From Nocardioides sp. GY 10113 (lineage in GTDB: Bacteria > Actinomycetota > Actinomycetes > Propionibacteriales > Nocardioidaceae), in the NCBI RefSeq assembly GCF_004919105.1, contig NZ_STGK01000007.1, positions 1 to 64,000 of the forward strand: a stretch of DNA of 64,000 nt, written 5' to 3'. Below the pieces are notes generated by a model. The model searched no databases, was not told the DNA's origin, and saw only the letters and a list, made by a program, of their open reading frames with translations. Positions 21,292 to 39,898 of this stretch are shown in pieces; the stretch's first letter is position 1; each line of letters begins with the position of its first letter. A program made the translations under genes and the position numbers.

Positions 21292-21308
21292 CACGGTGCC
21301 CCCCGGGG

Positions 21309-23971: not shown

Positions 23972-26467
23972 TCAGGTCTCGCGCCCGGCCTCCGAGGCGA
24001 CGGCGGCGAACAGGCGCGAAACCTCCGGCTTCATCCGGTAGGTCGCGGGGTCACCGGGCGCCCATTCCGATGGCAGATGCCGGCCCATCTGCGCGACGTA
24101 CCGCCCGGGCCAAGCCAGCACGCCTGCCACCCCTAACGCACCGTTGGGGATGTCGCACACCTCGGCCAACTCATCCGCCGGAAGCGGCCGAGGGGAGGCG
24201 TCCATCAAGGCCTGGAAGAAGCGTCGACCGGCGGGACTCAGGCTCTGCCACAGGTAGCGTGCCGCCGCCACGTCCTCCTCGCTGTCTCCCCAGCCGAGGA
24301 GTTCCTCGCTCTCCGAGGGCGCCTCGGCCTCGAGGCGCTGGAGCGTCAGGCGCTCCTCGCCGAGGCTGACGTTGCGGGCCCGCCAGCCGGCGTCCTTGAT
24401 GGAGCGTGAGAGCGGCGAGCCGCCACCGGCGTACCAGATCGTGTAGTGCTTGCGCGCCGAGTCAGGGAGCGGCTCTGGCAACACCTCTTCGATCTCGGCG
24501 AAGGTGAGCCGCAGTTCATCACCCTCCTGCACGGCCAGCCAGGCGCGGAGCGGCTCGTACTTTCCGACCATGCCCGTGGCTCCTCCGACCGATTCGTCGG
24601 CGGAGCGGGCAGTGGCCGCCTGCACCGCATCCGACGGACACGGCCAGATCTCGACCAACGCCTCGACCGCCTCCGCAGTGCGGGCACGGATGTCGTCCTC
24701 GGTCCAGGAAACCGGGTGCGCGGTGACGATCCGGCTGTTCAGCGAGAGCTGGCTGTGCTGGAGCAGGTAGTCCCGCTTGCCGCCGCCAGGGAGGCCGCGG
24801 GAGGCGGACTCCGCGTCGGTCCACGGACGATTCGACAGCGTCGGGTTGAGCTTGGCGTTGACCAGCGTGAGGTTGCCCAGCGTGTGCACGAGCCGGTCCC
24901 GGCGCAAACCTGCGAGCTCGTCGCCGGCGATGTCGGCTCCCCAGTGCTCGCGCCATGCCTGCGGCATCACGTGCTCGACGGTCAGCCCCTGCGGACACGG
25001 CTGCCCCTCCCCCAGCGGGCCACGAAGACGGTCCTCCATCGCCTCGAGAAGCATCCGCATCCGGGCCCGGATCAACGAGCTGTAGACGGGTTCCTCGCTC
25101 AACCGTACGGCGAGCGTCGCGTCGTTCGGCCAGTAGCGCGAGTCGGCCGACTGCCCTGCCAGGAACCGCTCGACAGTGTCGCCAGCGACCTCGGCGCCGT
25201 GCTCCTCCACCTCCTTGAGCAGCTCCAGGACGACGCGGTTGTGATCCTTCGTGGTCACCCGGCACAGCGCACGGCGCACGAGCCAGCTCTCGAGGCTGCC
25301 CAGAGCCTTGTCGCGTTGCTCCTCGGGCAGATGCCCCTCCGGCTGGCGAAGCAGCCACAGCAGGAACGGCGCGACCACCTGGGTGTCCATCGCCTTCAGG
25401 ACGCGGTAGTGGAAGCGACCCGGCACGGTGTCGAGTGGCAGCGACTCCATCTCACGATGGATCCGGGCGTCCCGTGAGATCTCCGCGAGCAACCCGGCGA
25501 CGTCGTCTTGGCCACCGGTCATGAGGAAGTCGCGGAAGTCGGAGAAGACCCGGTCCGACTGCACCTCCCTCAACAGCTTCATCGTCAACCAGCGGTTGAG
25601 GAAGACGTCGATCCGCGGACGGTAGAGCCGTCCCTGCGCGACCGACTGCCGCCAGTGGTCGTCATCCAGGTCGCGCCAGTGCTTCCGATAGAGGGCCTCG
25701 ACGTCGAGCTGCTGGTGGGTGGCGATCTGGAACACGAGATTCTTGACCAGGTCGGAGGCGAGCAGCGGGCTACCGCGGTGGTTGAGGGTCTCGAAGATCA
25801 CCTGGGCGTTGTCGCCGGGCTCAAGGTCGATCACCACCAGCCGGAGATGGTCCCGCAGCACCCGGGTCAGCGCCGACAGGCGGGCGACCACCTTGCCCGG
25901 GTCACCGCTGAGGTCTGCCCACTCCTGGACTACCTCAACGAAGAACTTGTGGGCCTGCGCGATGCGCGAGCCGCTCAGCGAGGCCGGCACGACGGTGTCG
26001 TCGTCCATCGCGGCCCGGAACGCGTCCTGGTCCCGGTCAGTCGGCCACACCTTGAACACGTCGTCGGGGTTCGCGGACATCGCCCGGTTGTTCTCCACGA
26101 GGACCAGGAGAGCTTGGGCGTCCATCTCGGCGCCGTGCCTTGCCACCACCCACTGCGCCGCGTCCAGCAGCAGCTGCAGGGTCGTGAGCCGCTGCTGCCC
26201 GTCGATCACGTGCCGCACCCCGATGTGGGCCACCGGGGAGATCTGCTGCTCGATGACGATCGCGCCGAGGAAATGGGGCGGTACCTGCGGAGCGCCGTAG
26301 GCGGCGGCCGGCGCGTCGAGGAGGCGCTCCGCCACCGCACGGACGTCCTCCCAGAGCGGCTGCCACTGATCCTTCTCGTTCCAGACATAGGGACGCTGGA
26401 ACAACGGGACCACGTACCGGATCGCATTGCCGAAGATCTCCGCCGGACTGTGGGTCAGTGCCTTCAC
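23972..26467 (-). CDS. GmrSD-type DUF262/DUF1524 restriction enzyme
   Basis: 831 aa from a GTG with AAGGAG 7 bases upstream. The N-terminal DUF262 domain has VPLFQRPYVW and VIDGQQRLTTLQ, the ParB/Srx-like nucleotide site of GmrS. The middle is helical. Near 505-560 a DUF1524 HNH-type motif appears: TVEHVMPQAW, then LGNLTLVNAKLN. An extra C-terminal module (about 620-831) contains YTIWYAGGGSPL and a final helical region. GmrSD enzymes are type IV systems that cut modified (glucosylated) phage DNA using NTP. Here it closes a minus-strand defence cluster. Substrate is unknown. Confidence 0.92.
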   Translation of the reverse strand: MKALTHSPAEIFGNAIRYVVPLFQRPYVWNEKDQWQPLWEDVRAVAERLLDAPAAAYGAPQVPPHFLGAIVIEQQISPVAHIGVRHVIDGQQRLTTLQLLLDAAQWVVARHGAEMDAQALLVLVENNRAMSANPDDVFKVWPTDRDQDAFRAAMDDDTVVPASLSGSRIAQAHKFFVEVVQEWADLSGDPGKVVARLSALTRVLRDHLRLVVIDLEPGDNAQVIFETLNHRGSPLLASDLVKNLVFQIATHQQLDVEALYRKHWRDLDDDHWRQSVAQGRLYRPRIDVFLNRWLTMKLLREVQSDRVFSDFRDFLMTGGQDDVAGLLAEISRDARIHREMESLPLDTVPGRFHYRVLKAMDTQVVAPFLLWLLRQPEGHLPEEQRDKALGSLESWLVRRALCRVTTKDHNRVVLELLKEVEEHGAEVAGDTVERFLAGQSADSRYWPNDATLAVRLSEEPVYSSLIRARMRMLLEAMEDRLRGPLGEGQPCPQGLTVEHVMPQAWREHWGADIAGDELAGLRRDRLVHTLGNLTLVNAKLNPTLSNRPWTDAESASRGLPGGGKRDYLLQHSQLSLNSRIVTAHPVSWTEDDIRARTAEAVEALVEIWPCPSDAVQAATARSADESVGGATGMVGKYEPLRAWLAVQEGDELRLTFAEIEEVLPEPLPDSARKHYTIWYAGGGSPLSRSIKDAGWRARNVSLGEERLTLQRLEAEAPSESEELLGWGDSEEDVAAARYLWQSLSPAGRRFFQALMDASPRPLPADELAEVCDIPNGALGVAGVLAWPGRYVAQMGRHLPSEWAPGDPATYRMKPEVSRLFAAVASEAGRET

Positions 26468-26601: not shown

Positions 26602-27507
26602 CTATGTGCCCCCGGTCCCTGCCGCGGCATGCTGCCTCATCGAGGACGCCGTCCGGCGTTCTGCAATCTCCGCGGTCAGATTGAATGCGAACTTCTGATC
26701 TGCCGCGATGGCCGGTCGCAGGAGAGGATGCTCCGCGAGATGCTCGGGCACCCAGATGTGCTGCGGCGGCGCGTAGGGCCACTCGAGCTCACCCGCCTGG
26801 TCGCTCTCGCCCTCCTCAGTGACTCGCACGATGCCCGCCGGAAGGTGCAGGGTCGCATCGTTGGCCAGAAACCAGGCGCGCTGATCCCGGCCAAGACGAT
26901 CGGAATGCGACTTAACCTCGACCAACTCCAGGCCTTCCACCGTCCCCTGCGGCGAGAAAGCGAGCACGATCAGGTCGGGCCAGCCGGCTCGACGACCCCA
27001 GTAGTCCTCGATCAGGTAGGAGAGAACCGCTTTCGTCTGCGCCGCGGACATCGCTCCCAGGAGCAGAGCAGCCGTCAGCTCGATGGCCAGGTCCTCGAGC
27101 GGGTGGGCTGTTCTCGCCAGCATCTCGCGTGCTGCCACCGTCGGCGAACGGTTCGCGATGAAGCGGCTAAGAAGCTCCTCGGAGTCGTCGGGGAGGCTTC
27201 GGATGTGGGCAGCCGCGACCTCGGCGCTCGGCCACGGGTCGGGGTCGTCGCTGTATCGAATCCGCCCCAGCGGCAACACCGGGTGCATCAACCCGCCCAG
27301 TAAATGGCCGAACGGAGGGTACTCCCCGCGCAGCACTACCTTCCCGCTCGACACGAAGTGCCGCGCGACCCAGTCCTCGACGGTGAGCGCGTCGGCCCAG
27401 TCCTCAGATCCGGGCGGCAGCAGCCGCCGCCGACCACGGCCCTTGCCCACCACGTAGCGTGCCGCGAGAGTCCGCTCGCCGGGCAGCCCGGCTGCAGCCC
27501 GGCTCAC
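26602..27507 (-). CDS. VRR-NUC-type nuclease coupled to type ISP enzyme
   Basis: 301 aa from a GTG overlapping the stop of the type ISP gene (GTGA, 27504-27507). A longer open frame upstream would lie inside that gene and has no ribosome site. The C-terminal half contains GWPDLIVLAF, ELVEVKSHSDRLGRDQRAW: Asp, then Glu-Val-Lys, then Gln/Trp, the VRR-NUC variant of PD-(D/E)XK. The N-terminal half is helical. VRR-NUC proteins cut structured DNA. The coupling implies it works with the restriction enzyme, perhaps processing its products; this is inferred. Confidence 0.85.
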   Translation of the reverse strand: MSRAAAGLPGERTLAARYVVGKGRGRRRLLPPGSEDWADALTVEDWVARHFVSSGKVVLRGEYPPFGHLLGGLMHPVLPLGRIRYSDDPDPWPSAEVAAAHIRSLPDDSEELLSRFIANRSPTVAAREMLARTAHPLEDLAIELTAALLLGAMSAAQTKAVLSYLIEDYWGRRAGWPDLIVLAFSPQGTVEGLELVEVKSHSDRLGRDQRAWFLANDATLHLPAGIVRVTEEGESDQAGELEWPYAPPQHIWVPEHLAEHPLLRPAIAADQKFAFNLTAEIAERRTASSMRQHAAAGTGGT

Positions 27508-30500
27508 TGCTGCTCCCGGATCGCGAGGGCGGGGAGGGCGTCGACGATCACCATCGTCTCCAGGCTGACCGTCACGATGCGCGCGAGCAGGTCGAGGATG
27601 TATCGGGGGTCCTCGACCTCGCGGCTCCAGTCGTTGGGGTCGTTGACGATGCCAGACGCCTTGTCGGTCTTCACCTGGTAGCGGTCGAGGATCCACTCGA
27701 CCGCCGAGCGGGAGCCGAGCTGGTAGCGGTACGCCGCCTCTGGGATGCCGCTGACCGTGATCTTGGAGTTGTAGATGATGCCTGTGCGGTCGGCAACGAG
27801 CTTCTTGGTCTCGGGGTCGCGGACCTTGGCGAACGCCAACTTCTGCACGCGGTAGAAGTCATACTCGTCCGCCCCCACCGGGGGCCTCGCGTCGAGACCG
27901 TCCAGCGGGTACGGCGTCACCGACTCGTAGCCGAGGTGCAGCTCGGAGAGCTGACGGCCCGCCTCGACGAACGGCCACGGGTCCTCGACCAGCGGGATCC
28001 GGGGCAGCATCTTCTTCAAGTCCGCCGCATAGGTCTCGCGGTACTCCCCGCTGTGCAGCAGCCCGTAGACGTAGAAGAAGATGTCGTCCTTGGCGAACTC
28101 GCCGTAGGCGGTCACGAAGCGCTTCAGCGCCTCGTCGGTGATGTTGTCGATGCGTCTGTAGCCGTCGATGTCGTTGGCATCCGCTCCGAAGGACAGCATG
28201 CCGTCATCGGAAACTGGTTCGTACCGCCAGCGCGGGAAGAACTGCCCAGGGTTGCCAGCACCGGGCAAGACCAGATCCGGAACACAGTTGATCATGATCG
28301 ATGTGAAGGAGCCAGCCGCGCCTGGAGCTGACACATAAAAGCCGTCGTTCGCGAGGTTAGGCTTCGGGAAGAACGCAGGTTGCCTCGAGACGCTGTCGTT
28401 CATCGACCGGCTGAAGTAGATCCTCTGCTTCATGAAGGGTCTGTAAGCAGCGACAGTTATGGCCTGCGGATCGAATTCATGCTGCTTTCCGCGCTCGTGG
28501 TCTCGAAGGAGCGCACGACTCCAACTGATCCTGGCTGGATCGGAGATAGCGGTCCGCGATACGCGACAAGTTTCGTAAGTCGCGATCATGCTCTGCATGT
28601 TGGCCGTGAGCGCGCCAAGCGACGAGTTATATGCCCATGCATCGCGATTGGTCTTGACGCCATCGCCATAGGCACCGAAGATCCGATCCGGCCCCTCGCT
28701 CTTAAGTCCAATCTGTAGGAACTTATCGAAGTCATCACGACGCTGGTTGAGCCAATCGCCGTGCTCGTTTGGAGTGATGTGGGTGACGGGTTCGAGTCTC
28801 GTGACGTCACCGGCCTCCGCGGTCTTGGCGAGCTTCTGCTCAGCGGTGAGGTAGTCGCCGATGTCGGTGTAGTGAATGGTGGCCGGGCCGGGCCTTTCGG
28901 GGTTACGCACCAGCACGGTCACTGCGACGGTGGCGCGGCTGCCTGACTCGAACACCGTCCCGCCCTCCTTCTTCCGCTGCTCGCCAGCAGTTCGGGCGTT
29001 GCCGCGCAGGTTGAGGACGTAGATGGAGGAGAACTCGTCCGCGAGGGTCTTGCGCATGCCGTCGGCCGTGTTGGAGTCCAGCCAGCCGCCGTTGGTGACG
29101 TAGGCGATCACGCCACGATCTTGGATGCGGAGGGTGGCCCACTTGATGGCACGGATGTAGGAGTCGTAGAGCGAGTTCTTGTTGGTCGCGGTCGACCGGT
29201 CGGCGTAGGTCCTACGGATCTGGTCGTCGAGGCCGGGGTACTTCTCGTTGGCGTTGTCGTCGTTGGCCGAGTCCTGGCCAGACGAGTAGGGCGGGTTGCC
29301 GACGATGACGGTGACGGGCGTCTGCTTGAGCTTCTCGAGGCGCTCGTTGTTCTCGGGGAAGACCTCCAGGTCGGGGGTGTCGTCGTCCTCCCACGACTGG
29401 AAAGTGTCCGTGAGGACGAGCCCTGGAAACTCGACGTATTCGTGGCCGGGATCGGCGGCACGCTTGCCGCCACCTGGCGCCGCGACCGACGTCATCACGT
29501 CGTAGTAGGTGGTCTCGATGTTGACCGCGGCGATGTAGTAGGCGAGCAGCAGGATTTCGTTGGCGTGGAGTTCCTCGGCGTACTTCCGGGCGAGGTCGTG
29601 CGGCTCGATCAGTCCGAGCTGGAGCAGCCGGACCAGGAAGGTGCCCGTGCCTGTGAACGGGTCGAGGATGTGGACGCCCTCGTCGGTGAGGCCCTGTCCG
29701 AACTCCTGGCGTAGAACGGTGTCGGCGGAGCGGAGGATGAAGTCGACGATCTCGACGGGGGTGTAGACGATGCCGAGCTTGTCGACGGTCTTCTTGAAGG
29801 CGGTCGAAAAGAAGGTGTCGTAGAGCTCGACGATGATCCGCTGCCGGCCCTCGGCAGAGTCGATGCCCGCGACCCGCATCCGAACGGAGTCGTAGAACTT
29901 CTCCAGGGTGCGGTTCTCGTCGTCGACGTTGTGGGCGTCCAGTGCCGCGAGCATCCGCTCCATGGTGGTGGCGACGGGGTTGTGCTCGAGGAACTGAGAA
30001 CCGGCGAAGAGTGCGTCGAAGACGGGCCGGGTGATCAGGTGCTGGGCCAGCATGTCGATCGCGTCGGCCTCGGTGATGCCGTCATTGAGGTTGTTACGCA
30101 GGCCGGTTAGGAAGTGGTCGAACTCGTCCCGGACTCCCGTGTTGGGGTCGTTCAGGAGGGCGTGGATCCGGGTGGTCTGGCGGGTGGCGATGTCGGCGAC
30201 GGACTTGGCCCAGTCGGTCCAGTACCGGCGTGATCCGACCTTGGCGACGATCTTGGCGTACATGGCGTCGCGGAGCAGGTCGAGGTCGCGGAAGGCCAGC
30301 GGCAGCTCGAGCTGCTCGTCCGTGCGGTCGTGGTCGGTGACGCCGATGACGTTGATCTTGTCGTCGCGCTTGGCGGTGAGCTCGATGCGGTTGACCATCG
30401 CGTCGAACCGCTCGTCATGGGCACGCAAGGCCTGGAGAACCTCCCACACGGCGGCGTACCGCTTGTTGTCGGCGAGCGCCTGCTCCGGGGTCATTCCAGC

Positions 30501-32303
30501 GGGGATCCCAACCGGAAGGATGATGTAGCCGTACTGCTTGCCGGGCGCGAGCCGCATCACGCGGCCGACGGACTGGACGATGTCGACGATCGACTTGCGC
30601 GGGGACAGGAACATCACCGCGTCCAGGGCGGGGACGTCGACGCCCTCGGAGAGGCAGCGGGCGTTCGTCAGGATCCGGGCGCTGTTCGGTGCGGGTTCCT
30701 CCTTAAGCCAGTCGAGGCGCTCGTTGCGCTCGAGGGCGTTGAAGGTGCCGTCGACGTGGCGAACCGTGCACTTCAGCGGAAGCTCGCCGTCCTCCTCCAG
30801 GCCGGTCGAACGCGCGTAGTGCTCGGTGATGTCGGTGAACATCTGCTCGACCCGCTTGGAGTCCTTGATGTTCCCGGCGAAGGCGACCGCGCGGCGCATC
30901 GGATCGGTGTCGGGGGCGAAGGAGTGCTCGGCCTTGCCGATCTTGGCCAGGCCGTTCCAGCAGCCGACCAGCTTGGCGGCGTCGTCGAGCTGGAGCTCGT
31001 TGTCGGCGTCGGAGAGCTGCTGCTGGAACGTCCTCGCGACCGACTCCTCGTCGACGGCGAGGACGAGCACCTTGTAGTCCGTGAGCAGATTCCGCTCGAC
31101 GGCCTCGCCAAATCCGAGACGGTGGAACTCGGGACCAAAATCGTCGGCCTTGTCATCCATGGACACGACTACAGCGTTGGCCTCGCCCGCCTTCGCGCGG
31201 GAAGCATCGTTGTAGATCCGCGGGGTAGCCGTCATGTAGAGACGGCGGGCGCCCGGGAGGTAGGCGTTGTTGTGGACCCGTACGAACGCGGACTCCTCAG
31301 CGCCCGCGAGGGTGACGCCGGTGGTGCGGTGGGCCTCGTCGCAGACGATCAGGTCGAACGGCTCCCGGCCCTGCTGGGCACGGGCGACGACGTCGATGGA
31401 CTGGTAGGTGGAGAAGACCACCGTCATCGCGTCGGTGTCCTTGGCGGCGGCGTCGAGGCGGGCGCGGAGGATGTCGACGTTGGTGGTGGCCGGCAGGGCG
31501 AGGTCGACGGTCGAGATGTCCTCGTCGTTAGCCGAGCGCTTGGTGGACTTGGCGTCGGAGCAGACCGCGAGCGGGCGGATCGGGAGCTCGGACTCGGAGA
31601 CCCACTCCCGGACGGTCTGGGAGAGCAGGGAGATCGAGGGGACCAGGAACAGGACGCTGCCGCCTGCGCCGACGTTCTGCTCGGCCAGGCGCAGCGAGGT
31701 GAAGGTCTTGCCGGTGCCGCAGGCCATGATCAGTCGGCCGCGGTCGGTCTCCCCGAACCCGGCGGTGACCTTCTCGATGGCGGTGGCCTGGTGCGGGCGG
31801 GGCTGCTTCTTCTCGTGGAGCTCGAGCTCGACGGTGATCTGGGTGGGGTCGAGCAGCTTCCAGTCGACCCGGGAATGCTCGAGGTCGGACAGCCCGATGC
31901 GGCGTACCGGCTTGGCCTGGTCCTTCAGCGTCTGCTCGGCGTTGGCGTTCCACTTCTCGGTGGTGGAGACGACGATCCGGTCGGTGAACGCATTGGTGCC
32001 CGAGGCAGCCAGGAAGGAGTCGATCATCGGCTTGGTGACGTAGACGTGCGGCGCGAAGAACTTGCACTGGATCGCGGTCAGGTCACCGGTGATCGCGTCC
32101 TTGGCGACCAGGTCGATGCCGGTGTCGTGCTTGCCCTGGTTGCCGGGCCACTCGCCCCACAGCCAGACGTCGGAGAACTGGTCGGCGAAGACCGGGTCGA
32201 TCCGCAGGTACGCCTGCACCAGCCGCTCGAACTTCGTGCCCTTGTCCGCCTCGGACAGAGCGGATGCGCGCAGGTGGTCCAGCACCTCGTAGATCGTCGT
32301 CAC
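27504..32303 (-). CDS. Type ISP single-chain restriction-modification enzyme
   Basis: 1599 aa from the GTG at 32303 with AGAGGG upstream. Domain order is that of LlaGI/LlaBIII, and the length is usual for the family. The N-terminus is Mrr-like nuclease (GIDLVAK...IQCK, about 60-75). The SF2 translocase follows, with Walker A CGTGKT near 195, DEAH-type CDEAHR near 320 and a motif VI region. The N6-adenine methylase has FTGTGTF near 880 and NPPY near 1002. The C-terminal target recognition region is about 1180-1355. The enzyme methylates one strand of an asymmetric site and translocates to cut unmodified DNA. The target recognition part is visibly lower in G+C than the rest, a sign of domain exchange. 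Confidence 0.95.
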   Translation of the reverse strand: MTTIYEVLDHLRASALSEADKGTKFERLVQAYLRIDPVFADQFSDVWLWGEWPGNQGKHDTGIDLVAKDAITGDLTAIQCKFFAPHVYVTKPMIDSFLAASGTNAFTDRIVVSTTEKWNANAEQTLKDQAKPVRRIGLSDLEHSRVDWKLLDPTQITVELELHEKKQPRPHQATAIEKVTAGFGETDRGRLIMACGTGKTFTSLRLAEQNVGAGGSVLFLVPSISLLSQTVREWVSESELPIRPLAVCSDAKSTKRSANDEDISTVDLALPATTNVDILRARLDAAAKDTDAMTVVFSTYQSIDVVARAQQGREPFDLIVCDEAHRTTGVTLAGAEESAFVRVHNNAYLPGARRLYMTATPRIYNDASRAKAGEANAVVVSMDDKADDFGPEFHRLGFGEAVERNLLTDYKVLVLAVDEESVARTFQQQLSDADNELQLDDAAKLVGCWNGLAKIGKAEHSFAPDTDPMRRAVAFAGNIKDSKRVEQMFTDITEHYARSTGLEEDGELPLKCTVRHVDGTFNALERNERLDWLKEEPAPNSARILTNARCLSEGVDVPALDAVMFLSPRKSIVDIVQSVGRVMRLAPGKQYGYIILPVGIPAGMTPEQALADNKRYAAVWEVLQALRAHDERFDAMVNRIELTAKRDDKINVIGVTDHDRTDEQLELPLAFRDLDLLRDAMYAKIVAKVGSRRYWTDWAKSVADIATRQTTRIHALLNDPNTGVRDEFDHFLTGLRNNLNDGITEADAIDMLAQHLITRPVFDALFAGSQFLEHNPVATTMERMLAALDAHNVDDENRTLEKFYDSVRMRVAGIDSAEGRQRIIVELYDTFFSTAFKKTVDKLGIVYTPVEIVDFILRSADTVLRQEFGQGLTDEGVHILDPFTGTGTFLVRLLQLGLIEPHDLARKYAEELHANEILLLAYYIAAVNIETTYYDVMTSVAAPGGGKRAADPGHEYVEFPGLVLTDTFQSWEDDDTPDLEVFPENNERLEKLKQTPVTVIVGNPPYSSGQDSANDDNANEKYPGLDDQIRRTYADRSTATNKNSLYDSYIRAIKWATLRIQDRGVIAYVTNGGWLDSNTADGMRKTLADEFSSIYVLNLRGNARTAGEQRKKEGGTVFESGSRATVAVTVLVRNPERPGPATIHYTDIGDYLTAEQKLAKTAEAGDVTRLEPVTHITPNEHGDWLNQRRDDFDKFLQIGLKSEGPDRIFGAYGDGVKTNRDAWAYNSSLGALTANMQSMIATYETCRVSRTAISDPARISWSRALLRDHERGKQHEFDPQAITVAAYRPFMKQRIYFSRSMNDSVSRQPAFFPKPNLANDGFYVSAPGAAGSFTSIMINCVPDLVLPGAGNPGQFFPRWRYEPVSDDGMLSFGADANDIDGYRRIDNITDEALKRFVTAYGEFAKDDIFFYVYGLLHSGEYRETYAADLKKMLPRIPLVEDPWPFVEAGRQLSELHLGYESVTPYPLDGLDARPPVGADEYDFYRVQKLAFAKVRDPETKKLVADRTGIIYNSKITVSGIPEAAYRYQLGSRSAVEWILDRYQVKTDKASGIVNDPNDWSREVEDPRYILDLLARIVTVSLETMVIVDALPALAIREQQ

Positions 32304-32446
32304 GCCCTCTTGATACCTCACCGGTCCGTCGCATGGGGCGCACTCCCCCTCCGTCGGCGGTTTCGGAACAAATCGCACGGCATGCAATCGAGCGACCTAC
32401 CCTCGATGGGTCCGTGCCTTGGCACGGCCGCGGGGAGGGGTACTTG
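32304..32446. promoter_or_regulatory. Divergent promoter region of defence island
   Basis: 143 bases between the type ISP gene and the nuclease-helicase pair. A perfect hairpin CCGTGCC-TT-GGCACGG (32412-32427) lies just before the GGGGAGGGG ribosome site, and a shorter ACCC-N5-GGGT element precedes it. These could be regulator sites or control translation of the nuclease gene. Confidence 0.4.
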
Positions 32447-35122
32447 GTGAGCGGTCTGATCGCCGGCGGTGGCAGCGGTGCCGTCGCGTCCTCGGCGCAC
32501 GCGGGGTGCGAGCGGTTCCGGATGACCGATCCGATGCTGCTGGGCCGCAGCCGCCGGGCGCTGGCCGCCGATCTCGGTGCGCCCGACATCGGCGCGGGCA
32601 TCCCGACCGCGCGGTGGGTGCGGGCGATGGCGTTCGAGCGGATGGTGCACGACGAGTCCTTCGTCTCCGAGCTGCTGACCCGCGCGGTGGGGCTCCTCGG
32701 GTTGGAGCGGCCGAAGGCGGTCCGGATCCGTTCGGGCAAGGACGCGGTCGCGGTCACCGCGTCCGAGCTGGCGGCCGCCGACCTGAAGGCGCGGCACGCC
32801 GGCGAGGCCACGATGCTGTTCAGCCTCCGGGTGCCGTTCCTGCACCTGGAGAAGGAGGCGGGCGCGACCGACGTACGCCCCGACTTCGCGATCGTCGTCC
32901 CCCAGTCCGGCAGCCCCGCGCCGGGCTCGTGGCTGGTGATGGGCGATGCGAAGGACTTTGAGCGGGTGCGGGCGCGGATCGACGACGGACGGATGCTCAA
33001 GGGATTCCTCCAGGTCGCGCTCGGAGCCGAGTCCGCCGCCGCCTGGTCCAAGCTGCCCCGGGCCATGGCGGTACACCGGTTCGGGGTGCTCGCGGTGCCT
33101 CGCAACGCCTACCTGCGTCCGGAGGCCGTGGTGGAGGACCTCGCCGACCACCGCCGAGAAGTCAGAGTCCGGGTCGAGGAGCGGATCGCGGCGCTCGGCG
33201 CACTGCAGGCGGTGCCGTCGACCCCCGACGAACTGCGTGCCCATGTGGACCACGTCGCGGCGACCTACGACCCGACGACCTGTCCGACCTGCTCACTGTT
33301 CCGGTACTGCCGCGGGGAACTGCGCGGCTCCGGCGACCCGACGGCGGTGCTGACTGAGATCGGGGTCCGGCCCGCCCAGCGGGCCGCCGTGCTGGGTCTG
33401 GTCGACGGCACGGGGGTCGCTCCTCCCCCGTCGGCCCCGGCGTCCCTGGTCGCTGCCGTCGAGGCCACGGTCAGCGGGTTGCCGGTCCGGACCGGACGCC
33501 TGCGCATCGACGCCGTCGGGCAGCCGGGCTGCATCAACGTGGTCGCGGTCAAGTCCGACGCGGCCGCGCTCGGCGTGCATGGGATCGCGGTCCAGCGGAT
33601 CGACGGGTCCGGCACGGAACCGTGGCAGCGGCGCACCTTCGAGCGGACCAACGCCACCGAGACCCGGCACGCGGCGATGAGCCTGCTCGGCGCCGGCGTG
33701 CGGGAGGTTCTCGCGGCCGGGCACGGGCCGGTGCACCTGGTGGTGCCGGACAAGCCGACCGCCGACCTGCTGGTCTCGATAGCCGACTCACTGGCCGGCG
33801 TCGAACTGAGCCGGCTGCGGTGGCTACGCGACCTGGCGGAGGGCCGGGAGATCCTCACCTTCGACGGCGAGCCCGCCACCCTGCCCGACGCGCTGGACGA
33901 CGACGCCCGGACCGCCGTGAGCCTGCTGCTGGAGGAGGACCGGGCACGGGCCTTCGGGCTGCGGCAGCCGGTGGTCGACCTCCGGGCGGTGGTCACCACC
34001 TACCTCACCCCCGGTGGCCCGCGCTCCGACGCCGGCCGCCTCGACTACCTCCTCGCCTGGGCCGAGGCCACCACTCCCCTGGAACACCGAGCCGTCACCG
34101 ACGCCATCGCCGACGGCAGTGACACCCCCGGCGCCCGGCTCTCCACCGAGCTCTCCGACCAGGTCCACGACGCCGGCCGCCCCGGTCGGGGCGATCCGGT
34201 GCGGTACCAGCAGCTGGTGGACGAGGCCCTGGACTATCGCATCGACGTTCTGAACCGGTCCGTCGCCTTCCTGGACACGCTGCCGAACTCGCGGCTGCGG
34301 CCCGCCTACCGGGCGCTCGAGCAGGACGCCCAGACCGTGTGGGGACGCAGGCTCGCGCTTCAGGCGTCCGACCTGGTCCGGTTCTCCCGCACCTACCGGT
34401 ACTGGCGCAACGCCCAGGTCGACATGCTCGACGCCGACCGGAAGTGCCGCGACCAACTGGCGGCGCTGGTCGACGACCAGGTCGCCCACGACCGTGCGGC
34501 GGACGCCGGCGTACGCGAGCTCGCGGTGGCCACGGTCGTCGGACTCGCCCCGCTGCGGCTGGAGGTCGCGTCGCGGCAGATGAAGGACGGTAGCGTGGTC
34601 GTCCTGCTCCACGGCCCCTCGGGGCCGGCCGTCGAAGGGGACGTCGACCTGACCGTGCAGGCGACCAGCTTCAAGCTCGGTCGGATGGCGATCGGAAGGC
34701 TGACCGACGACGGCGAGCCCGGGCTGCTCTGGGAGCCGGTCGTCACGCCTGCGTTGGCGCTGGGCGACCGCGTCGTGCTCGGTGACGCCGAGTGGCTCGG
34801 CGGCGGCTACAAGTCGGGCCACGAGATGGCGATCAAGCGTCCCGGCGTCGACGGGCTGGCGGCCCCAGGCCAGGACTGCACTCCCGACTCATACGCGACC
34901 GATCCCGCCGGTCACCAGTGGTGCTGCCGCCCGCACGAGGCCGCCGAGGCCGAGTGGTCCGACACCATCGCCGAACGCCGGTCCCGGGGCGAGCTCAACC
35001 CCGAGGTGTGGCCGCCAGTGATCGACGAGGAGCGTTTCGACCCCGCCGACGGCGAGGACCCGGTCCCCGGCACCGACCCTGGCCCCGTGCCGGCCGACCT
35101 CACCCTGGACGACCTGGACTGA
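32447..35122 (+). CDS. Fe-S RecB/Cas4-like nuclease (Dna2-type, TM0106-like)
   Basis: 891 aa from the GTG at 32447, with GGGGAGGGG 6 bases upstream. PD-(D/E)XK core: Asp146 (DFAIVV) and Asp167-Ala-Lys169 (GDAKDF). Four Cys fit an iron-sulfur staple of the Cas4/AddB/Dna2 kind: Cys21 near the N-terminus and Cys279, Cys282 and Cys288 (CPTCSLFRYC). Residues 300-890 continue with a helical and beta-rich region like the N-terminal half of TM0106-type RecB/Dna2 proteins. A C-terminal Cys/His patch (HQWCCRPHE) is unusual. In Dna2-like proteins the SF1 helicase is fused; here it is the next gene, 8 bases downstream. Likely resects or degrades foreign DNA. Confidence 0.85.
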   Translation: MSGLIAGGGSGAVASSAHAGCERFRMTDPMLLGRSRRALAADLGAPDIGAGIPTARWVRAMAFERMVHDESFVSELLTRAVGLLGLERPKAVRIRSGKDAVAVTASELAAADLKARHAGEATMLFSLRVPFLHLEKEAGATDVRPDFAIVVPQSGSPAPGSWLVMGDAKDFERVRARIDDGRMLKGFLQVALGAESAAAWSKLPRAMAVHRFGVLAVPRNAYLRPEAVVEDLADHRREVRVRVEERIAALGALQAVPSTPDELRAHVDHVAATYDPTTCPTCSLFRYCRGELRGSGDPTAVLTEIGVRPAQRAAVLGLVDGTGVAPPPSAPASLVAAVEATVSGLPVRTGRLRIDAVGQPGCINVVAVKSDAAALGVHGIAVQRIDGSGTEPWQRRTFERTNATETRHAAMSLLGAGVREVLAAGHGPVHLVVPDKPTADLLVSIADSLAGVELSRLRWLRDLAEGREILTFDGEPATLPDALDDDARTAVSLLLEEDRARAFGLRQPVVDLRAVVTTYLTPGGPRSDAGRLDYLLAWAEATTPLEHRAVTDAIADGSDTPGARLSTELSDQVHDAGRPGRGDPVRYQQLVDEALDYRIDVLNRSVAFLDTLPNSRLRPAYRALEQDAQTVWGRRLALQASDLVRFSRTYRYWRNAQVDMLDADRKCRDQLAALVDDQVAHDRAADAGVRELAVATVVGLAPLRLEVASRQMKDGSVVVLLHGPSGPAVEGDVDLTVQATSFKLGRMAIGRLTDDGEPGLLWEPVVTPALALGDRVVLGDAEWLGGGYKSGHEMAIKRPGVDGLAAPGQDCTPDSYATDPAGHQWCCRPHEAAEAEWSDTIAERRSRGELNPEVWPPVIDEERFDPADGEDPVPGTDPGPVPADLTLDDLD

Positions 35123-35130
35123 CGGGCTGA

Positions 35131-36636
35131 GTGAGTATGGCGATCGAGTTCACCGCCCCGGTGGCGGACGCGCCCACCGACGCCCAGCACCACGCGCGGG
35201 CGGCCGCCCAGAACGTGGTCGCATCGGCCGAGGCCGCCGCCGCCCTGATGGCCACGCTGAACGGGATGGCCGAGTACGAGAAGGTCCTGCTGCGCGCCGC
35301 GGCTGGTGCCGGGAAGTCCGTCGCGCTGGTATCGATGGTCGGCGAGGCCCTTGCCAACCCGAACTGCCTGCGGATCGCGGTCACCGCGTTCGCGAACAAG
35401 CAGGTGATCCCGCTGGCGCAACGCCTCGGGGCTGCGTACGGGCCGGACAAGGTGTGCCTGTTCGTGTCGAAGGCGTGGGAGCCGAAGCTCCCCGAGGACC
35501 TCGCCGACATGGCCACCGTGGTCACCAAGTCCAAGGAGATCCCGGAGTCGGCGCGGATCGTGCTCGGCGTCTCCCACAAGTTCAAGGTCATTGGCGAGTA
35601 CTCGCGGATGCACGCCCGCCTCGGTCCCGGAGCGAACGGCGAGCGGATCTTCGACGTGCTCTTCGTGGACGAGGCGTGGCAGATGCCGCTGCACCTGTTC
35701 ACCGGAGTCGAGGGGTATGCGCCGGTCGCGGTCGGCGTCGGCGATGTCGGGCAGCTGCCGCCGATCGACCCCAGCGAGAACCCGTGGCGCGGCGACCCGG
35801 GCTACAACCCGTACCGCGCCTGGCCCACGGCGTACGAGGGGCTGGCGACGACCTTCGCCCGCGACCTTCCGGCCGTGTGGCGGCCCACCGCCGAGCAGCT
35901 GCCACTGTGGCGAGCCTTCTACGGCGACTGGGACCGGCTCGACTGCGTGGCGGCCCCGGGCGACCGGCACATCGACCTGCCCGTATTCGACGGAGACGCC
36001 GGGGCGGTGTGGTCCGCCGTCGCAACGGGGCACCCGGTCCTCCTGGAGGTCGACGGCCTCCCCGAGGCCGAGGCCCCAGACATCGACCCGCCGCTGCTGG
36101 CATACCTCGAGGACCTGCTCCGCCCACTGCTGGAGGGCGGGTTCAGCACCGTCGAGGCCCGGTACGACGACGTCGGCGACCCGTTCGAGGAGCACCGCGT
36201 CACCTCCGACCAGCCGACCGGCGACCCCCTTGTGGTTGTGCTCGCGACCCGCAACCAGGCCGTCGACGACGCCACCGCGATGGTCGAGCGGCTCACCAAG
36301 GAGCTCGACCTGCCCGAGGGCGTCCTCGTGGCCTCGACCGTCGACTCCTGGCAAGGCCAGACCAACCGCATCACCGTCGCCCTCCACCCGCTGTCGGGCG
36401 CCGACCAGCTCGACGAGTTCAACTCCGCCTTCGGACGGCTCGCCGTTACCTGCACGCGGGCGACCCACGGGCTCCTGCTGCTGGCGCGCGCCGGGCTCGA
36501 CGACCTGCTCGACGGAGCCGCCGCGCGGCCGGGGACGCCGTTGGGCGAACCTGGGACGCGTGCGCTTCCGCGGCAGACGCACCAGCGGATCCTGGCCGCG
36601 TTCACCCGGGGAACCTGCACAACCGACGTGACCTGA
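35131..36636 (+). CDS. SF1 helicase partner of RecB/Cas4-like nuclease
   Basis: 501 aa from a GTG 8 bases after the nuclease stop; an ATG two codons later is possible. Motifs of a Upf1/Dna2-type SF1 helicase are present: GAGKS (59-63), motif II DEAWQ (Asp180), motif III GDVGQLPPI, motif V STVDSWQGQT and motif VI VTCTRATHG. It has no nuclease domain and is short, so it probably works as the motor for the preceding nuclease. Together they resemble a Dna2 enzyme divided into two polypeptides. Placement back-to-back with a restriction enzyme suggests phage defence. Confidence 0.9.
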   Translation: MSMAIEFTAPVADAPTDAQHHARAAAQNVVASAEAAAALMATLNGMAEYEKVLLRAAAGAGKSVALVSMVGEALANPNCLRIAVTAFANKQVIPLAQRLGAAYGPDKVCLFVSKAWEPKLPEDLADMATVVTKSKEIPESARIVLGVSHKFKVIGEYSRMHARLGPGANGERIFDVLFVDEAWQMPLHLFTGVEGYAPVAVGVGDVGQLPPIDPSENPWRGDPGYNPYRAWPTAYEGLATTFARDLPAVWRPTAEQLPLWRAFYGDWDRLDCVAAPGDRHIDLPVFDGDAGAVWSAVATGHPVLLEVDGLPEAEAPDIDPPLLAYLEDLLRPLLEGGFSTVEARYDDVGDPFEEHRVTSDQPTGDPLVVVLATRNQAVDDATAMVERLTKELDLPEGVLVASTVDSWQGQTNRITVALHPLSGADQLDEFNSAFGRLAVTCTRATHGLLLLARAGLDDLLDGAAARPGTPLGEPGTRALPRQTHQRILAAFTRGTCTTDVT

Positions 36637-36976: not shown

Positions 36977-37277
36977 CGGGAGATGCGAAGAGAGGTGATC
37001 CCGGTGGTTTCGCGACGTCCGCGTATCCGGGTCCGCAGCGTCCCTGGAGGCAGTTCGCCCCTGGTTCGCAGCGAGGTTGTCCGGGCCTGGCTCACCCTCG
37101 CCCGCGCCGCCGCCCGTCGGCCCGGCCCCTCCCAGATCGACGACGACCCGTGCAGTGCCCGCTCCTCGGGACCCACCGCCCGCGAGACCGTGCGCCACCG
37201 CCGAGGCCCGGCAACTCGCGACGTTCCGCGAGATGCCCAACCGACCCGAAGCCAATCGCTATAGAGAAGGAATCGCC
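36977..37277. other. Region upstream of recombinase genes
   Basis: 301 bases without a convincing gene, although one frame stays open. It ends with AGAAGGAAT, the ribosome site for the recombinase ATG. It is the most likely place for the recombinase promoter and possibly an attachment site. Confidence 0.35.
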
Positions 37278-38570
37278 ATGCCCCGCCACCAGCGGACCAG
37301 TACTCCCGCTCCGTCCCACGCCGTGACATCGGAGCCCAACATCGCCCCCGACACAGCGACCCGAGCTCGTTCGCTGGTGGTCTGCCGAGAGTCCAATCAA
37401 TACGACTGCCTGCTGCTCGAGGGACTCCTCGAACAGACCTTCGCGTACCTCGATCTCGCATCCGTACCGACAGCACGGCTGTACGGAATCCTCCCGCTGA
37501 CCGACCCGGGCCAACTTCCACCGGACGTCCCGGTCATCACGCTCGTCGAGGGCAAGACCAGGGCATCACTCATGGAGATCGACGGCGACTACTACCTGTA
37601 CTCGATGGCGAGCGCCGCGAAGTTCGACGAACGAGGCAACAACGAATTCACGACCCTGCTCTGCCGGGTGCTCGAACGGCTTCGCCCGCTGGACATGTAC
37701 GCCGCCACCCACAGTCGGCTGGTGCGCGGACTGACGCACGGTGCGAACCTCAGCAGCGCGGTGGCCAGACACGTCGACCGCGTGCACGCCGGCACCACCA
37801 CCATGGACATGCGCGGCGGCGACAGATCCGTCGGCCACCTGCTCTGGACGATGCTCTCGATGATCGCCTCGAGCGAGCGCGATCTCATCGTCCAGCGGAC
37901 CTCGGCCGGCAAGGTCAACCAGTACTCGAGAGGCGAGTGGATCCAGGGCAACAACTCGGTCCCGCTCGGCTATCAACTGACCGGCAAGACCCTCGTCGTC
38001 GACCCCGAACAGACCGAGCTGCTCAATCTCGCCTGGACGCTGATGGCCGACCCGAACCTGAGCTCGACCGAGATCGTGATGAGGCTGGCCGCACGAGGGG
38101 TGTCGACACCGCGCACCCGGAAGGATGGAGAAACGATCGCGGAGCTGGTGGGTCACCACTCCTGGATCCAGACCCAGCTGTGGTGGGCGGACCTCTACAT
38201 GACGGGCAAGTACACCATGCGGTTCAAGAACCCGTTCCCGGGCGCGGAGCACCTCGCCGGATGCCCGGTCCTCTACGAGATCGACGAGTCCGGCGTCCGC
38301 GACGAGATCGGGGTGCTCGAGTTCGACTACGACTTCGGACGCCCGAATCTGGACCCGGCCCTGATCACGGCCGCGGTGCGAGCGCGGCGTACATCACGTC
38401 CCACCGGCGGTGCCGCGAAGTCGCACGTGCCCGCACTCAACGGCCTGCGGTGGATCGCTGACGGCATCGAGTACCGGCTGGCGGGAGCCACTCGGGGCAT
38501 GTACGCGCTGCGCGCACTCGGCGACGCCGAGCGCTCAGACGAGGACAGCATCGCGGATGGTGTCGCATGA
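37278..38570 (+). CDS. Serine recombinase, catalytic subunit of a split large recombinase
   Basis: 430 aa from the ATG at 37278, with AGAAGGAAT upstream. The resolvase domain starts CRESNQ, where Ser39 follows the conserved Arg and is the likely nucleophile. Then come HSRLVRG (near 145), the helix ASSERDLIVQRTSAGK and GYQL, followed by the recombinase domain (about 215-330). The zinc-ribbon domain expected next is replaced by a Cys-free LNGLRW...GIEYRL stretch. The usual coiled coil is absent; both features occur in the protein encoded by the next gene, which overlaps by ATGA. This suggests a two-chain integrase. Confidence 0.85.
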   Translation: MPRHQRTSTPAPSHAVTSEPNIAPDTATRARSLVVCRESNQYDCLLLEGLLEQTFAYLDLASVPTARLYGILPLTDPGQLPPDVPVITLVEGKTRASLMEIDGDYYLYSMASAAKFDERGNNEFTTLLCRVLERLRPLDMYAATHSRLVRGLTHGANLSSAVARHVDRVHAGTTTMDMRGGDRSVGHLLWTMLSMIASSERDLIVQRTSAGKVNQYSRGEWIQGNNSVPLGYQLTGKTLVVDPEQTELLNLAWTLMADPNLSSTEIVMRLAARGVSTPRTRKDGETIAELVGHHSWIQTQLWWADLYMTGKYTMRFKNPFPGAEHLAGCPVLYEIDESGVRDEIGVLEFDYDFGRPNLDPALITAAVRARRTSRPTGGAAKSHVPALNGLRWIADGIEYRLAGATRGMYALRALGDAERSDEDSIADGVA

Positions 38571-39898
38571 GGAAGGCGACCATCGGCAACCAGGCAAGCG
38601 GCGCGAAAGTGGCGCAGGTCCGCATCGCTGACCTGCACCGCAGCATCGCAGAGGGGATCGCTGAGGGTCTGCGCCGAGGAGTGCCCGGGGTCAGGCTGGA
38701 CGGCCACGAGACGAGGGGCAACGACCTCGACGGCCACATGGTCATCAACGCCCGGCGCGCCCAGATCGACCACCTCCGCGAGCGCGTGGTTGACGAGCGC
38801 CACCGAAGCGCCCGGTTCAGGCGCCTGGCGGCCGAACACGACGATCCCGAGAAGAGCGCACCCTACGTCGCTGATGCTGACGCACACTTCGAGTCCGCAC
38901 GGCGACTGGAGGCCCAACTGCGCGACCTCGAAAGTCGTGTCGACAGCGAAGCGCTGCCCCTGCACTTCACGACCGGCGTCGAACTCCTGCTCACCGGGGT
39001 CACAGCTCTGCTGCTCGACCCGGACGCTGCGGACGCCTCCGTCGCGAAGGCCTTCACCAGTCTGCTGCGGGACTTCCAGATCGAGCCGTTCTCCGAACCC
39101 CTGCGCTGGAGTACCTGGCTCGACGTTCCGGCCGACGGGCGGGTGATGTCCCTGGGACCCTTCACCGGCGAGGTAAAGGGGCACGGGCGTCGAATGAGCC
39201 CGGCTGAGAAGCAGGGGCTGGAGACCGTATTCGACCTACCAGAGCGTCGTCGGGCGCTGACCGCTGAACTGGTGGCGCACGGCGTTCCGAAGGAGACCGC
39301 TGCGCCGGCGGCGATGGCTCCGGACGGCTACCTGGCGCGGGTGCTCATGGGCGAGCCAGTGATCTGGCCCGACACCCCGGCGGGCTACGACCACGAGGCG
39401 TTCAACAACCATGTGCGCCGCCACTGGCCGGAAGACCTCGCCTGGCGAAGAGGTGTCTACAACGAGACCAACCCCGACAGACAACTGGTGACCGACATCG
39501 TCGCCGCGTACGGGGGTATCGCGTACGTCGCCGATGTACGACGGGTGCTGGCGTCGTACGGCGTGACTGTGCGCAACCTCGGCGTCTACTTCACCGCCCG
39601 GAAGCCAGCCAACCCGCAGACTCCCCCGTGGGACGCGTCGGTCCGGCACGCCGATGGCTGGCGACGTGGCACCTCGGACAATCGCGTGGAGAGCATCCGC
39701 TGCCCGGAGTGCGGGCTGCCAGCGACGGCAGTGGTTCGGGTGCCGGAGGTCCCCGGATCCCTGCTGTGCCGGACCTGCCTGGTCGCCCCGGCGCTCCCCA
39801 CACTCCGGTTCCCGCCGCTCTACGGGCAGCTCGCGCTGCCGAGCACGGTGATCCCGGAGGACCTTCTCACCTCGGCCACGCCACGCTGGAAGGTCTGA
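38567..39898 (+). CDS. Zinc-ribbon/coiled-coil partner of serine recombinase
   Basis: 443 aa, ATG overlapping the recombinase stop. Residues 45-130 are charged and helical, with a likely coiled coil around 65-130. The middle is a mixed domain. Near the C-terminus, CPEC (379/382) and CRTC (401/404) form a zinc ribbon. In single-chain large serine integrases the zinc ribbon and coiled coil sit in the C-terminal domain that binds DNA and sets direction. Here they are on a separate polypeptide, so this is probably the DNA-binding/directionality half. I do not recognise the domain between. Confidence 0.65.
   Translation: MRKATIGNQASGAKVAQVRIADLHRSIAEGIAEGLRRGVPGVRLDGHETRGNDLDGHMVINARRAQIDHLRERVVDERHRSARFRRLAAEHDDPEKSAPYVADADAHFESARRLEAQLRDLESRVDSEALPLHFTTGVELLLTGVTALLLDPDAADASVAKAFTSLLRDFQIEPFSEPLRWSTWLDVPADGRVMSLGPFTGEVKGHGRRMSPAEKQGLETVFDLPERRRALTAELVAHGVPKETAAPAAMAPDGYLARVLMGEPVIWPDTPAGYDHEAFNNHVRRHWPEDLAWRRGVYNETNPDRQLVTDIVAAYGGIAYVADVRRVLASYGVTVRNLGVYFTARKPANPQTPPWDASVRHADGWRRGTSDNRVESIRCPECGLPATAVVRVPEVPGSLLCRTCLVAPALPTLRFPPLYGQLALPSTVIPEDLLTSATPRWKV

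What the first reader, a model, noticed from the sequence alone, without database searches (positions are those of the whole stretch)
32447..36636. Dna2-like enzyme split into Fe-S nuclease and SF1 helicase genes
Cys21/279/282/288 and D146...D167-A-K169 give a Cas4/Dna2-type nuclease; the next gene has all SF1 motifs. Dna2-like and TM0106-type proteins usually carry both in one chain. The split pair in a defence island, with an odd HQWCCRPHE tail, may be an unnamed anti-phage system.
Basis: partly seen in the sequence, partly recalled or inferred. Interest (0 to 1): 0.72.

Follow-up and report, generated by a model that had tools for sequence, protein, structure and literature searches.

The report
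Two-gene Dna2-like engine beside restriction enzymes
Two neighbouring genes appear to encode one DNA-unwinding, DNA-cutting machine split into two proteins, and relatives of this pair in other actinobacteria often sit right beside a particular class of virus-cutting restriction enzyme, so it is probably an antiviral helper that chews up DNA.

Summary
In detail: 32447-35122 encodes an 891-aa protein with the stated Cys and D...DxK residues, 35131-36636 a 501-aa SF1 helicase. Predicted folds: protein 1 is a Cas4/Dna2-type nuclease, an RNase H-like domain, helices and a beta-rich domain; protein 2 is a UPF1/Dna2-type motor without 1B. The pair looks like a Dna2-like enzyme cut at the 1B|1A border. 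No Pfam, NCBIfam or PADLOC family covers it above cut-off. It is not alone: counting the window, 40 of 69 non-duplicate loci have a restriction-modification system directly beside it (Type ISP 16, Type III 24, one a remnant); in an order sample 8 of 8 intact pairs do. Against an obligate link: 29 loci show none in the flanks held, and 26 such genomes rarely carry one elsewhere. Precedents: Bad (fused, beside Type III Mod) and UvrD-Cas4 fusions (beside Type III Mod/Res). A distant three-gene cousin is common in the class, sometimes beside Type III. Best reading: auxiliary DNA-degrading motor recruited by one-strand-methylating, long-range restriction enzymes. New variant of a known, functionally untested kind; nothing was shown by experiment.

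The parts
32447..35122 (+). Gene 1 (NUC), 891 aa, GTG start
   Evidence: ORF and translation; 47-74% identity to 62 relatives
32447..33346 (+). Nuclease domain, about residues 1-300: C21, E64, D146, D167-A-K169, Q189, C279-x2-C282-x5-C288
   Evidence: conservation; Cas4 7mi4 Z 10.6, rmsd 4.3, 196 aligned; Dna2 5eaw Z 7.1, rmsd 4.7, 212 aligned
33509..34195 (+). Central domain, about residues 355-583, RNase H/DnaQ-like fold; K369, D440 and D533 invariant, D371 (E in 2 of 63)
   Evidence: RNase T 3ngy Z 9.0, rmsd 3.8, 162 aligned over 355-621; residues; same place as Pfam RNase_H_2 in a fused TM0106-type protein; catalytic state unknown
34196..34516 (+). Helical stretch, about residues 584-690, candidate stalk
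   Evidence: predicted helices; assignment is inference
34517..34846 (+). Beta-rich domain, about residues 691-800, candidate 1B barrel
   Evidence: predicted strands; only weak barrel matches, Z 5.8; assignment is inference
34877..34936 (+). C-terminal Cys/His motif C811-x11-H823-x2-CC-x2-H830 (the HQWCCRPHE tail)
   Evidence: invariant in 63 of 63 rows; metal binding is inference
35131..36636 (+). Gene 2 (HEL), 501 aa, SF1 helicase of UPF1/Dna2 type without 1B domain
   Evidence: motifs; Foldseek top hit Dna2 5eax E 9.4e-15; alignments start at Ighmbp2 residue 191, human Upf1 about 469-480, nsp13 about 260
27504..32387 (-). Divergent neighbour: single-chain Type ISP restriction-modification enzyme (likely start GTG at 32303)
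   Evidence: PF18135 E 6.8e-94, PF22240 E 8.6e-50, Mrr_cat_2 E 1.4e-44; NPPY motif; start by comparison with the starts of L013 and L014
32304..32446 (.). 143-bp divergent intergenic region between the Type ISP gene and gene 1
   Evidence: sequence with the start above

Best explanation
The two genes encode one enzyme: a heterodimeric Dna2-like helicase-nuclease in which the chain is cut between the 1B domain (end of protein 1) and the RecA core (protein 2). It most likely works as an auxiliary DNA-degrading motor for restriction-modification enzymes that methylate only one strand of an asymmetric site and communicate over long distances (Type ISP and Type III). The Type ISP enzyme next door nicks and shreds unmodified invading DNA; the pair then loads on the resulting nicks, flaps or ends, moves 5'-3' and cuts single strands, so that the invader cannot be resealed or repaired. 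Shown here: anatomy by prediction, conservation, strict pairing, recurrent adjacency to Type ISP/III. From the literature: DNA shredding by Type ISP (PMC4666363), 5'-3' motor and ssDNA endonuclease activity of the fused, similarly built Bad (PMC7430649). Inferred: complex formation, substrate, polarity here, cooperation with the restriction enzyme, anti-phage effect.
For: Anatomy. Pairing: HEL found after NUC in 66 of 68 non-duplicate loci, the other 2 being contig ends; the same 8 of 245 order genomes, the window's own among them, have both full-length. RM link: 39 of 68 loci (Type ISP 15; Type III Mod-Res 22, of which L061 only a remnant and L010, L011, L070 near-copies; another Type III subfamily 2) plus the window = 40 of 69. 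Among 53 of the 68 with at least 5 kb on both sides and NUC over 700 aa: Type III 18, ISP 12, other Type III 2, none 21. In the order sample 8 of 8 intact pairs are beside ISP (4, window included) or Type III (4); rough chance that a random gene is adjacent to one is 1e-4 (assumes 4,000 genes a genome and about 50 RM loci). Broken or active-site-altered NUC: 8 of 28 loci without adjacent RM, 0 of 40 with (Fisher p 4e-4; post hoc, not corrected for kinship, 5 of the 8 are Actinopolyspora). Partner classes switch on the tree: at least 11 changes among 62 rows, shuffled mean 29.9. Distant cousins also lie beside Type III in L101, L102, L117, L127. Independent precedents: Bad and UvrD-Cas4.
Against: 29 of 68 loci have no ISP or Type III in the flanks held (some flanks short), and 26 of these genomes carry ISP in only 3 and a full-length Mod of the Type III subfamily in only 1, so there the pair must work alone or with other partners. 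Type ISP and Type III systems mostly lack the pair: 35 of 245 order genomes have an ISP match and 12 a strong Mod match, but only 4 and 4 have the pair beside it; of 9 Type III and 9 ISP loci without it that I inspected, 2 Type III loci have a distant cousin and none of the ISP loci has. My neighbour queries were mainly ISP and Type III, so other partners may be missed. In four Actinopolyspora loci D167 is lost. No experiment, no prediction of the complex, no relative in the phage records or in two viral-contig scans.
Confidence: 0.52

Rival explanations
1. Self-contained two-gene anti-phage system (sensor motor plus nuclease, comparable in layout to Hachiman or Gabija) that merely co-travels with restriction enzymes in defence islands.
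For: 29 of 68 loci lack ISP/Type III in the flanks held and 22 of 26 such genomes show neither an ISP match nor a full-length Mod of this subfamily anywhere; the helicase key residues tested are intact in the aligned rows; GmrSD, PglZ or Zac genes lie near some copies.
Against: The partner is specific: immediate adjacency, mostly in fixed orientation, to Type ISP (13 of 15 divergent) or Type III (22 of 22 downstream on the same strand); decay was seen only in copies without RM.
Confidence: 0.27
2. DNA-repair or genome-upkeep enzyme that mends or clears host breaks, including collateral nicks made by one-strand-methylating restriction enzymes on newly copied DNA.
For: Fold of Dna2, a repair enzyme; the helicase of a distant three-gene cousin is found in 26 genomes of one genus group of the class sample, and 4 of 15 loci fetched share neighbours; Type ISP nicks unmodified head-to-tail pairs on replicated host DNA (PMC4666363).
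Against: The two-gene form is patchy (9 of 245 and 2 of 396 genomes, the window's own counted in both and one of the nine a fragment) and lies in different contexts even in close relatives such as L025 and L075; defence-type neighbours in the window.
Confidence: 0.16
3. Integral subunit of a new class of restriction enzyme (the proposal made for Bad), taking over cleavage from Res or ISP.
For: The Bad authors' proposal; Res of this Type III subfamily has DPH where E-x-K is expected, and the one Res scanned gets no RE_endonuc hit.
Against: Res and ISP are retained beside the pair; the DPH change is equally present in Type III loci without the pair; the window's ISP has an intact-looking Mrr nuclease.
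Confidence: 0.05

Closest known systems
Bad, bacterial DNA2-like helicase-nuclease (Geobacillus stearothermophilus; PMC7430649)
   Same: Fe-S RecB-type nuclease plus SF1B helicase, an extra central domain, neighbour of a Type III Mod gene (abstract, Discussion and one results section read)
   Different: Bad is one chain, here two; here complete Mod-Res or Type ISP as neighbour. Sequence relation to Bad not tested. [quoted passage not shown]
UvrD-Cas4 fusion proteins (PMC5704561, section 8 read)
   Same: Cas4-like nuclease with SF1 helicase, most often beside Type III Mod and Res
   Different: UvrD-type motor fused in one chain; ours is UPF1/Dna2-type and split. One genome (L117) has a UvrD-Cas4 fusion and a distant cousin of our pair at one Type III locus
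TM0106-family fused nuclease-helicases (TIGR03491)
   Same: Order of domains: nuclease, RNase H-like, gap, SF1 helicase (L095)
   Different: One chain; no hit of protein 1 to the model; profile comparison with L095 finds nothing for NUC and only motifs V-VI for HEL
Eukaryotic DNA2
   Same: Best Foldseek match of the helicase; similar nuclease
   Different: Single chain; no such central domain and an essential repair role (from the Bad paper)
Type III systems with an extra helicase-like gene (PMC8259958, Discussion read)
   Same: Extra ATPase gene beside mod-res
   Different: That gene is said to have no nuclease motif; homology to ours not tested

Membership tests
Bad (bacterial DNA2-like) | Nuclease and helicase in one chain | tested here: not met
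   Separate ORFs in the window and separate adjacent ORFs in the loci where both are held
Bad (bacterial DNA2-like) | Four-Cys Fe-S RecB-type nuclease | tested here: met
   Residue pattern and Cas4/Dna2 fold by prediction; the cluster itself not assayed
Bad (bacterial DNA2-like) | SF1B UPF1-like helicase | tested here: met
   Fold and motifs; polarity not assayed
Bad (bacterial DNA2-like) | Central domain homologous to that of Bad | not tested
   No Bad sequence was in hand
Bad (bacterial DNA2-like) | Type III Mod as neighbour | tested here: not met
   Not in the window (Type ISP instead); found in 22 of 68 other loci, one a remnant, plus 2 with another Type III subfamily
TM0106 family (TIGR03491) | Match above curated cut-off | tested here: not met
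   No NCBIfam hit for P0001 at E<=0.1
UvrD-Cas4 fusion | UvrD-type helicase fused to Cas4-like nuclease | tested here: not met
   UPF1/Dna2-type motor on a separate chain
PADLOC-listed defence systems | Profile match of both proteins to system components | tested here: not met
   P0001 none at E<=0.1; P0002 only partial helicase hits, best E 0.0012
Split Dna2-like enzyme (works like) | Helicase chain lacks 1B; partner chain carries it | tested here: inconclusive
   Alignments of HEL begin after 1B (position of 1B recalled); beta-rich 692-797 in NUC fits but no Dna2 1B match was listed
Type ISP RM enzyme (neighbour 27504-32387) | Mrr nuclease, SF2 motor, coupler, N6-MTase and ISP specificity domain in one chain | tested here: met

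The most novel reading that the evidence does not exclude
A Dna2-type end-processing engine, occurring as one, two or three genes, is a recurrent third arm of the restriction enzymes that methylate only one DNA strand (Type III and Type ISP); it turns their nicks into wholesale destruction of invading DNA, and its three-gene form is an ancient standing system of Actinomycetes.
Probability: 0.3. Interest if true: 0.75.

Novelty: new variant of a known kind. Interest (0 to 1): 0.57.

Why it matters
If right, some ordinary-looking Type III and Type ISP restriction systems of Actinobacteria are incompletely described: they come with a dedicated DNA-degrading motor. It supplies independent genomic support for the untested proposal that Bad is part of a restriction system, and gives natural two-chain and three-chain versions in which nuclease and motor roles can be separated by gene deletion. 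The split between 1B and 1A also offers a handle on how Dna2-type enzymes couple motor and nuclease.

Tried and rejected
Sequence searches of the PDB with the nuclease (single and profile) gave nothing. Foldseek with the whole nuclease gave no hit at E<=0.001 (best Cas4, E 0.017); VIA gave the domain assignments. Two viral-contig scans and the phage records gave no relative; 2 plasmid records, both Rhodococcus, did. Profile comparison with the fused TM0106-type protein was nearly empty. The idea that Res lost its nuclease because the pair supplies it was dropped: the same change is in pair-less loci (one pair-less row, L104, was mistranslated by my coordinates and does not count). The chance of adjacency is an estimate with an assumed gene number. 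Nine paper searches: no listed title or abstract start described this split pair or a Dna2-like pair beside Type ISP; the library lacks most subscription papers and supplements were not read. ZacABC gave no paper. The long ATG ORF from 32264 was rejected. Neighbour lists rest on a GC3-based ORF picker of mine that can pick wrong frames (it missed HEL in L016 and L041 and the nuclease gene of L102, for example); RM classes were called by tblastn instead. The genome-contig scan relied on two short exact peptide patterns, so distant relatives are missed.
Full report
What is there. Two genes on the + strand, 8 bp apart: 32447-35122 (NUC, 891 aa) and 35131-36636 (HEL, 501 aa). GC3 is 0.90 (computed on the longer ORF from 32264) and 0.93. 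NUC has no Pfam, NCBIfam or PADLOC family above cut-off (one Pfam hit at E 0.047, below cut-off); HEL has only sub-cut-off helicase hits. Of 63 HEL sequences (window included), 59 match AAA_19 and 25 match AAA_12 at E<=0.01. Seven further NUC members scanned gave no Pfam hit at E<=0.1.

Anatomy. AlphaFold models with 62-63 aligned sequences are good (NUC pLDDT 88.6, pTM 0.89; HEL 88.4, 0.87). HEL: Foldseek's best hit is Dna2 (5eax, E 9.4e-15), then Ighmbp2 and Upf1. VIA alignments start at Ighmbp2 191, human Upf1 about 469-480 and nsp13 about 260, i.e. after the 1B domain of those proteins (position of 1B recalled), so HEL lacks 1B. NUC 2-294 matches Cas4 (Z 10.6, rmsd 4.3, 196 aligned) and less well MGME1, Exo5 and Dna2 (Z 6.7-8.6); NUC 355-620 matches RNase T and other DnaQ-like folds (Z 9.0, rmsd 3.8, 162 aligned) (the tool warns that Z under 8 may mean only a common arrangement). 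Residues 584-685 are helical and 692-797 beta-rich; a stalk and 1B barrel would lie there, but no Dna2 1B match was listed, so that step is inference. A fused TM0106-type protein of a related genome (L095, 1182 aa) has PDDEXK_1, RNase_H_2, an unassigned stretch and AAA_12 in that order, the same layout. The simplest reading is a Dna2/TM0106-like enzyme cut between 1B and 1A. Sequence similarity to L095 is nearly nil.

Conservation. D146, K169, C279, C282, C288 and the tail C811/H823/C826/C827/H830 are 63 of 63; C21 55 of 55 rows that reach it; D167 59 of 63; Q189 60 of 63; E64 62 of 63. D167 is replaced in L055, L062, L066 and L072, all Actinopolyspora and all without an adjacent RM. The helicase key residues tested are intact in 64 rows.

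Distribution. tblastn: 2 of 72,556 plasmid records, no phage record. Whole genomes: 9 of 245 in the order (8 full-length with the window's own, 1 fragment), 2 of 396 in the phylum sample with the window's own (the second copy, L082, is the same as L065). GTDB contigs: 61 loci, all actinobacterial by their titles. HEL is found full-length in the same 8 order genomes, plus one distant hit, G148. HEL follows NUC in 66 of 68 non-duplicate loci; 2 lack it because the contig ends, one (L049) has it cut by a contig end, and in L080 both are fragments; gaps run from -62 to 365 bp, 62 of 66 being -17 to 38 bp. L010, L011 and L070 are near-copies (97-98% in NUC) but were counted singly. L136, a further ISP-linked pair met later, is not counted.

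Restriction neighbours. In the window the divergent gene 27504-32387 is a Type ISP enzyme. Of the 68 other loci: Type ISP 15 (13 divergent, 2 same strand), Type III Mod-Res of one subfamily 22 (all downstream, same strand; L061 only a remnant), another Type III Res-Mod 2 (L028, L032), none 29. With at least 5 kb on both sides and NUC over 700 aa, 53 loci: ISP 12, Type III 18, other Type III 2, none 21. In the order sample 8 of 8 intact pairs lie beside ISP (G000, G044, G189, G201) or Type III (G001, G106, G124, G205), whereas 35 of 245 genomes have an ISP match and 12 have a strong match (over 200 bits) to that Type III Mod. RM loci without the pair: of 9 Type III and 9 ISP loci inspected (two of the ISP loci are second copies in pair-bearing genomes; one Type III locus is cut by a contig end), none has this pair within about 8 kb; 2 Type III loci (L101, L102) have a distant cousin. 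On a 62-row tree partner classes are clustered but switch (at least 11 changes, shuffled mean 29.9; quick tree, SH-aLRT only).

Results against an obligate link. Of 26 genomes with a pair but no adjacent RM, 3 have a Type ISP match and 1 other has a full-length Type III Mod of this subfamily (one more has a weak hit). Twenty large neighbours were scanned: the two from L028 are Type III Res and Mod; none of the other 18 gave a methyltransferase hit at E<=1e-4, one is PglZ-like (L035). Copies without RM decay more: 8 of 28 broken or active-site altered (L019, L045, L078, L080 broken; L055, L062, L066, L072 altered; L034 and L049 left out as cut by contig ends) against 0 of 40 (Fisher p 4e-4), a post hoc count in which 5 of the 8 are one genus.

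Wider family. Distant relatives have the enzyme over three genes (nuclease, middle protein, helicase). In L101 all three were read beside Type III Mod-Res; in L102 the middle and helicase genes were read and the nuclease gene was not resolved by my ORF picker. In 14 aligned nuclease sequences (11, L101, L117, window) the columns of C21, D146, C282 and C288 are conserved in 14 and those of E64 and K169 in 12; L127 and L129 show no [D/E]xK. In L117 a three-gene set lies beside a UvrD-Cas4 fusion and Type III Mod-Res; in L127 nuclease and helicase genes precede a Type III Res-Mod. A helicase profile of three such proteins finds 53 of 296 class genomes at E<=1e-20, 47 of them of this kind by the gap in E-values (my reading), 26 in one genus group; how many genomes of that group lack it is not shown. 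Of 15 such loci fetched, chosen partly for second copies, the picker found the helicase in 12, the nuclease in 11 and the middle gene in 11; 4 (L118, L119, L125, L132) share neighbours and show no RM by my queries, which looks like a stable chromosomal locus. So the deep ancestry may be upkeep or standing immunity, with RM-linked forms recruited from it.

Literature. PMC7430649 (abstract, Discussion, one results section and passages read): Bad, a fused DNA2-like enzyme, 5'-3' motor and ssDNA endonuclease, neighbours a Type III Mod in Geobacilli; [quoted passage not shown] PMC5704561 (section 8 and passages): UvrD-Cas4 fusions most often neighbour Type III Mod and Res. PMC8259958 (Discussion and passages): an extra helicase-like gene beside some Type III systems; one-strand methylation of Type III sites. 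PMC4666363 (abstract and passages): Type ISP enzymes methylate one strand, collide and shred DNA by multiple nicks, and nick head-to-tail pairs. PMC12839542 (passages only): no occurrence of Dna2, Cas4, UPF1 or Type ISP in its main text.

Verdict. Observation confirmed; interpretation partly supported. The pair is most probably a split Dna2-like engine that assists one-strand-methylating, long-range restriction enzymes, with a real class of stand-alone copies still unexplained. New variant of a known but functionally untested kind.

Noticed in passing
window 10994-13030: MBL beta-CASP protein with sub-cut-off similarity to aCPSF1 and to the type VII CRISPR Cas14 model, between a 2101-aa protein of no clear family and a protein kinase matching PD-T4-6 profiles.
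   Followed up: no
window 19261-21294: ThiF/E1-type protein matching PADLOC E1-E2 (E 5.7e-38) with a weak E2-like N-terminus.
   Followed up: no
window 23972-26467: GmrSD-type protein with C-terminal DUF7662 and DUF6416.
   Followed up: no
window 26602-27696: VRR-NUC nuclease ORF overlapping the end of the Type ISP gene on the same strand.
   Followed up: no
window 37077-39898: Two overlapping genes after the pair; the first has a sub-cut-off resolvase N-terminus, possibly the island's recombinase.
   Followed up: no
window (genome G000, contig C33): The held genome has an estimated contamination of 6.82, so the contig's origin is not beyond doubt, though the nearest relatives of the pair are Nocardioides.
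   Followed up: no
L012, L013, L015, L016, L019, L020, L022, L024, L036, L038, L060, L067: ZacA and/or ZacC homologues near the pair in 12 of 69 non-duplicate loci, L019 counted and the window not (tblastn over 60 bits); in L015 Zac genes, pair and Type III form one run. ZacC is a helicase, so weak hits may be generic.
   Followed up: partly
L012, L013, L014, L016, L020, L022: EcsC or DUF726 protein directly after the Type ISP or Res gene, in L012, L014, L020 and L022 with a further conserved gene of about 275 aa.
   Followed up: no
L117:5508-16876: Three-gene Dna2-like set, UvrD-Cas4 fusion and Type III Mod-Res at one locus.
   Followed up: partly
L118, L119, L125, L132: Three-gene cousin in a shared chromosomal setting without RM by my queries.
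   Followed up: partly
L010:20308-22905 and relatives: Res of this Type III subfamily carries PDF...DPH instead of a canonical E-x-K, with and without the pair.
   Followed up: partly
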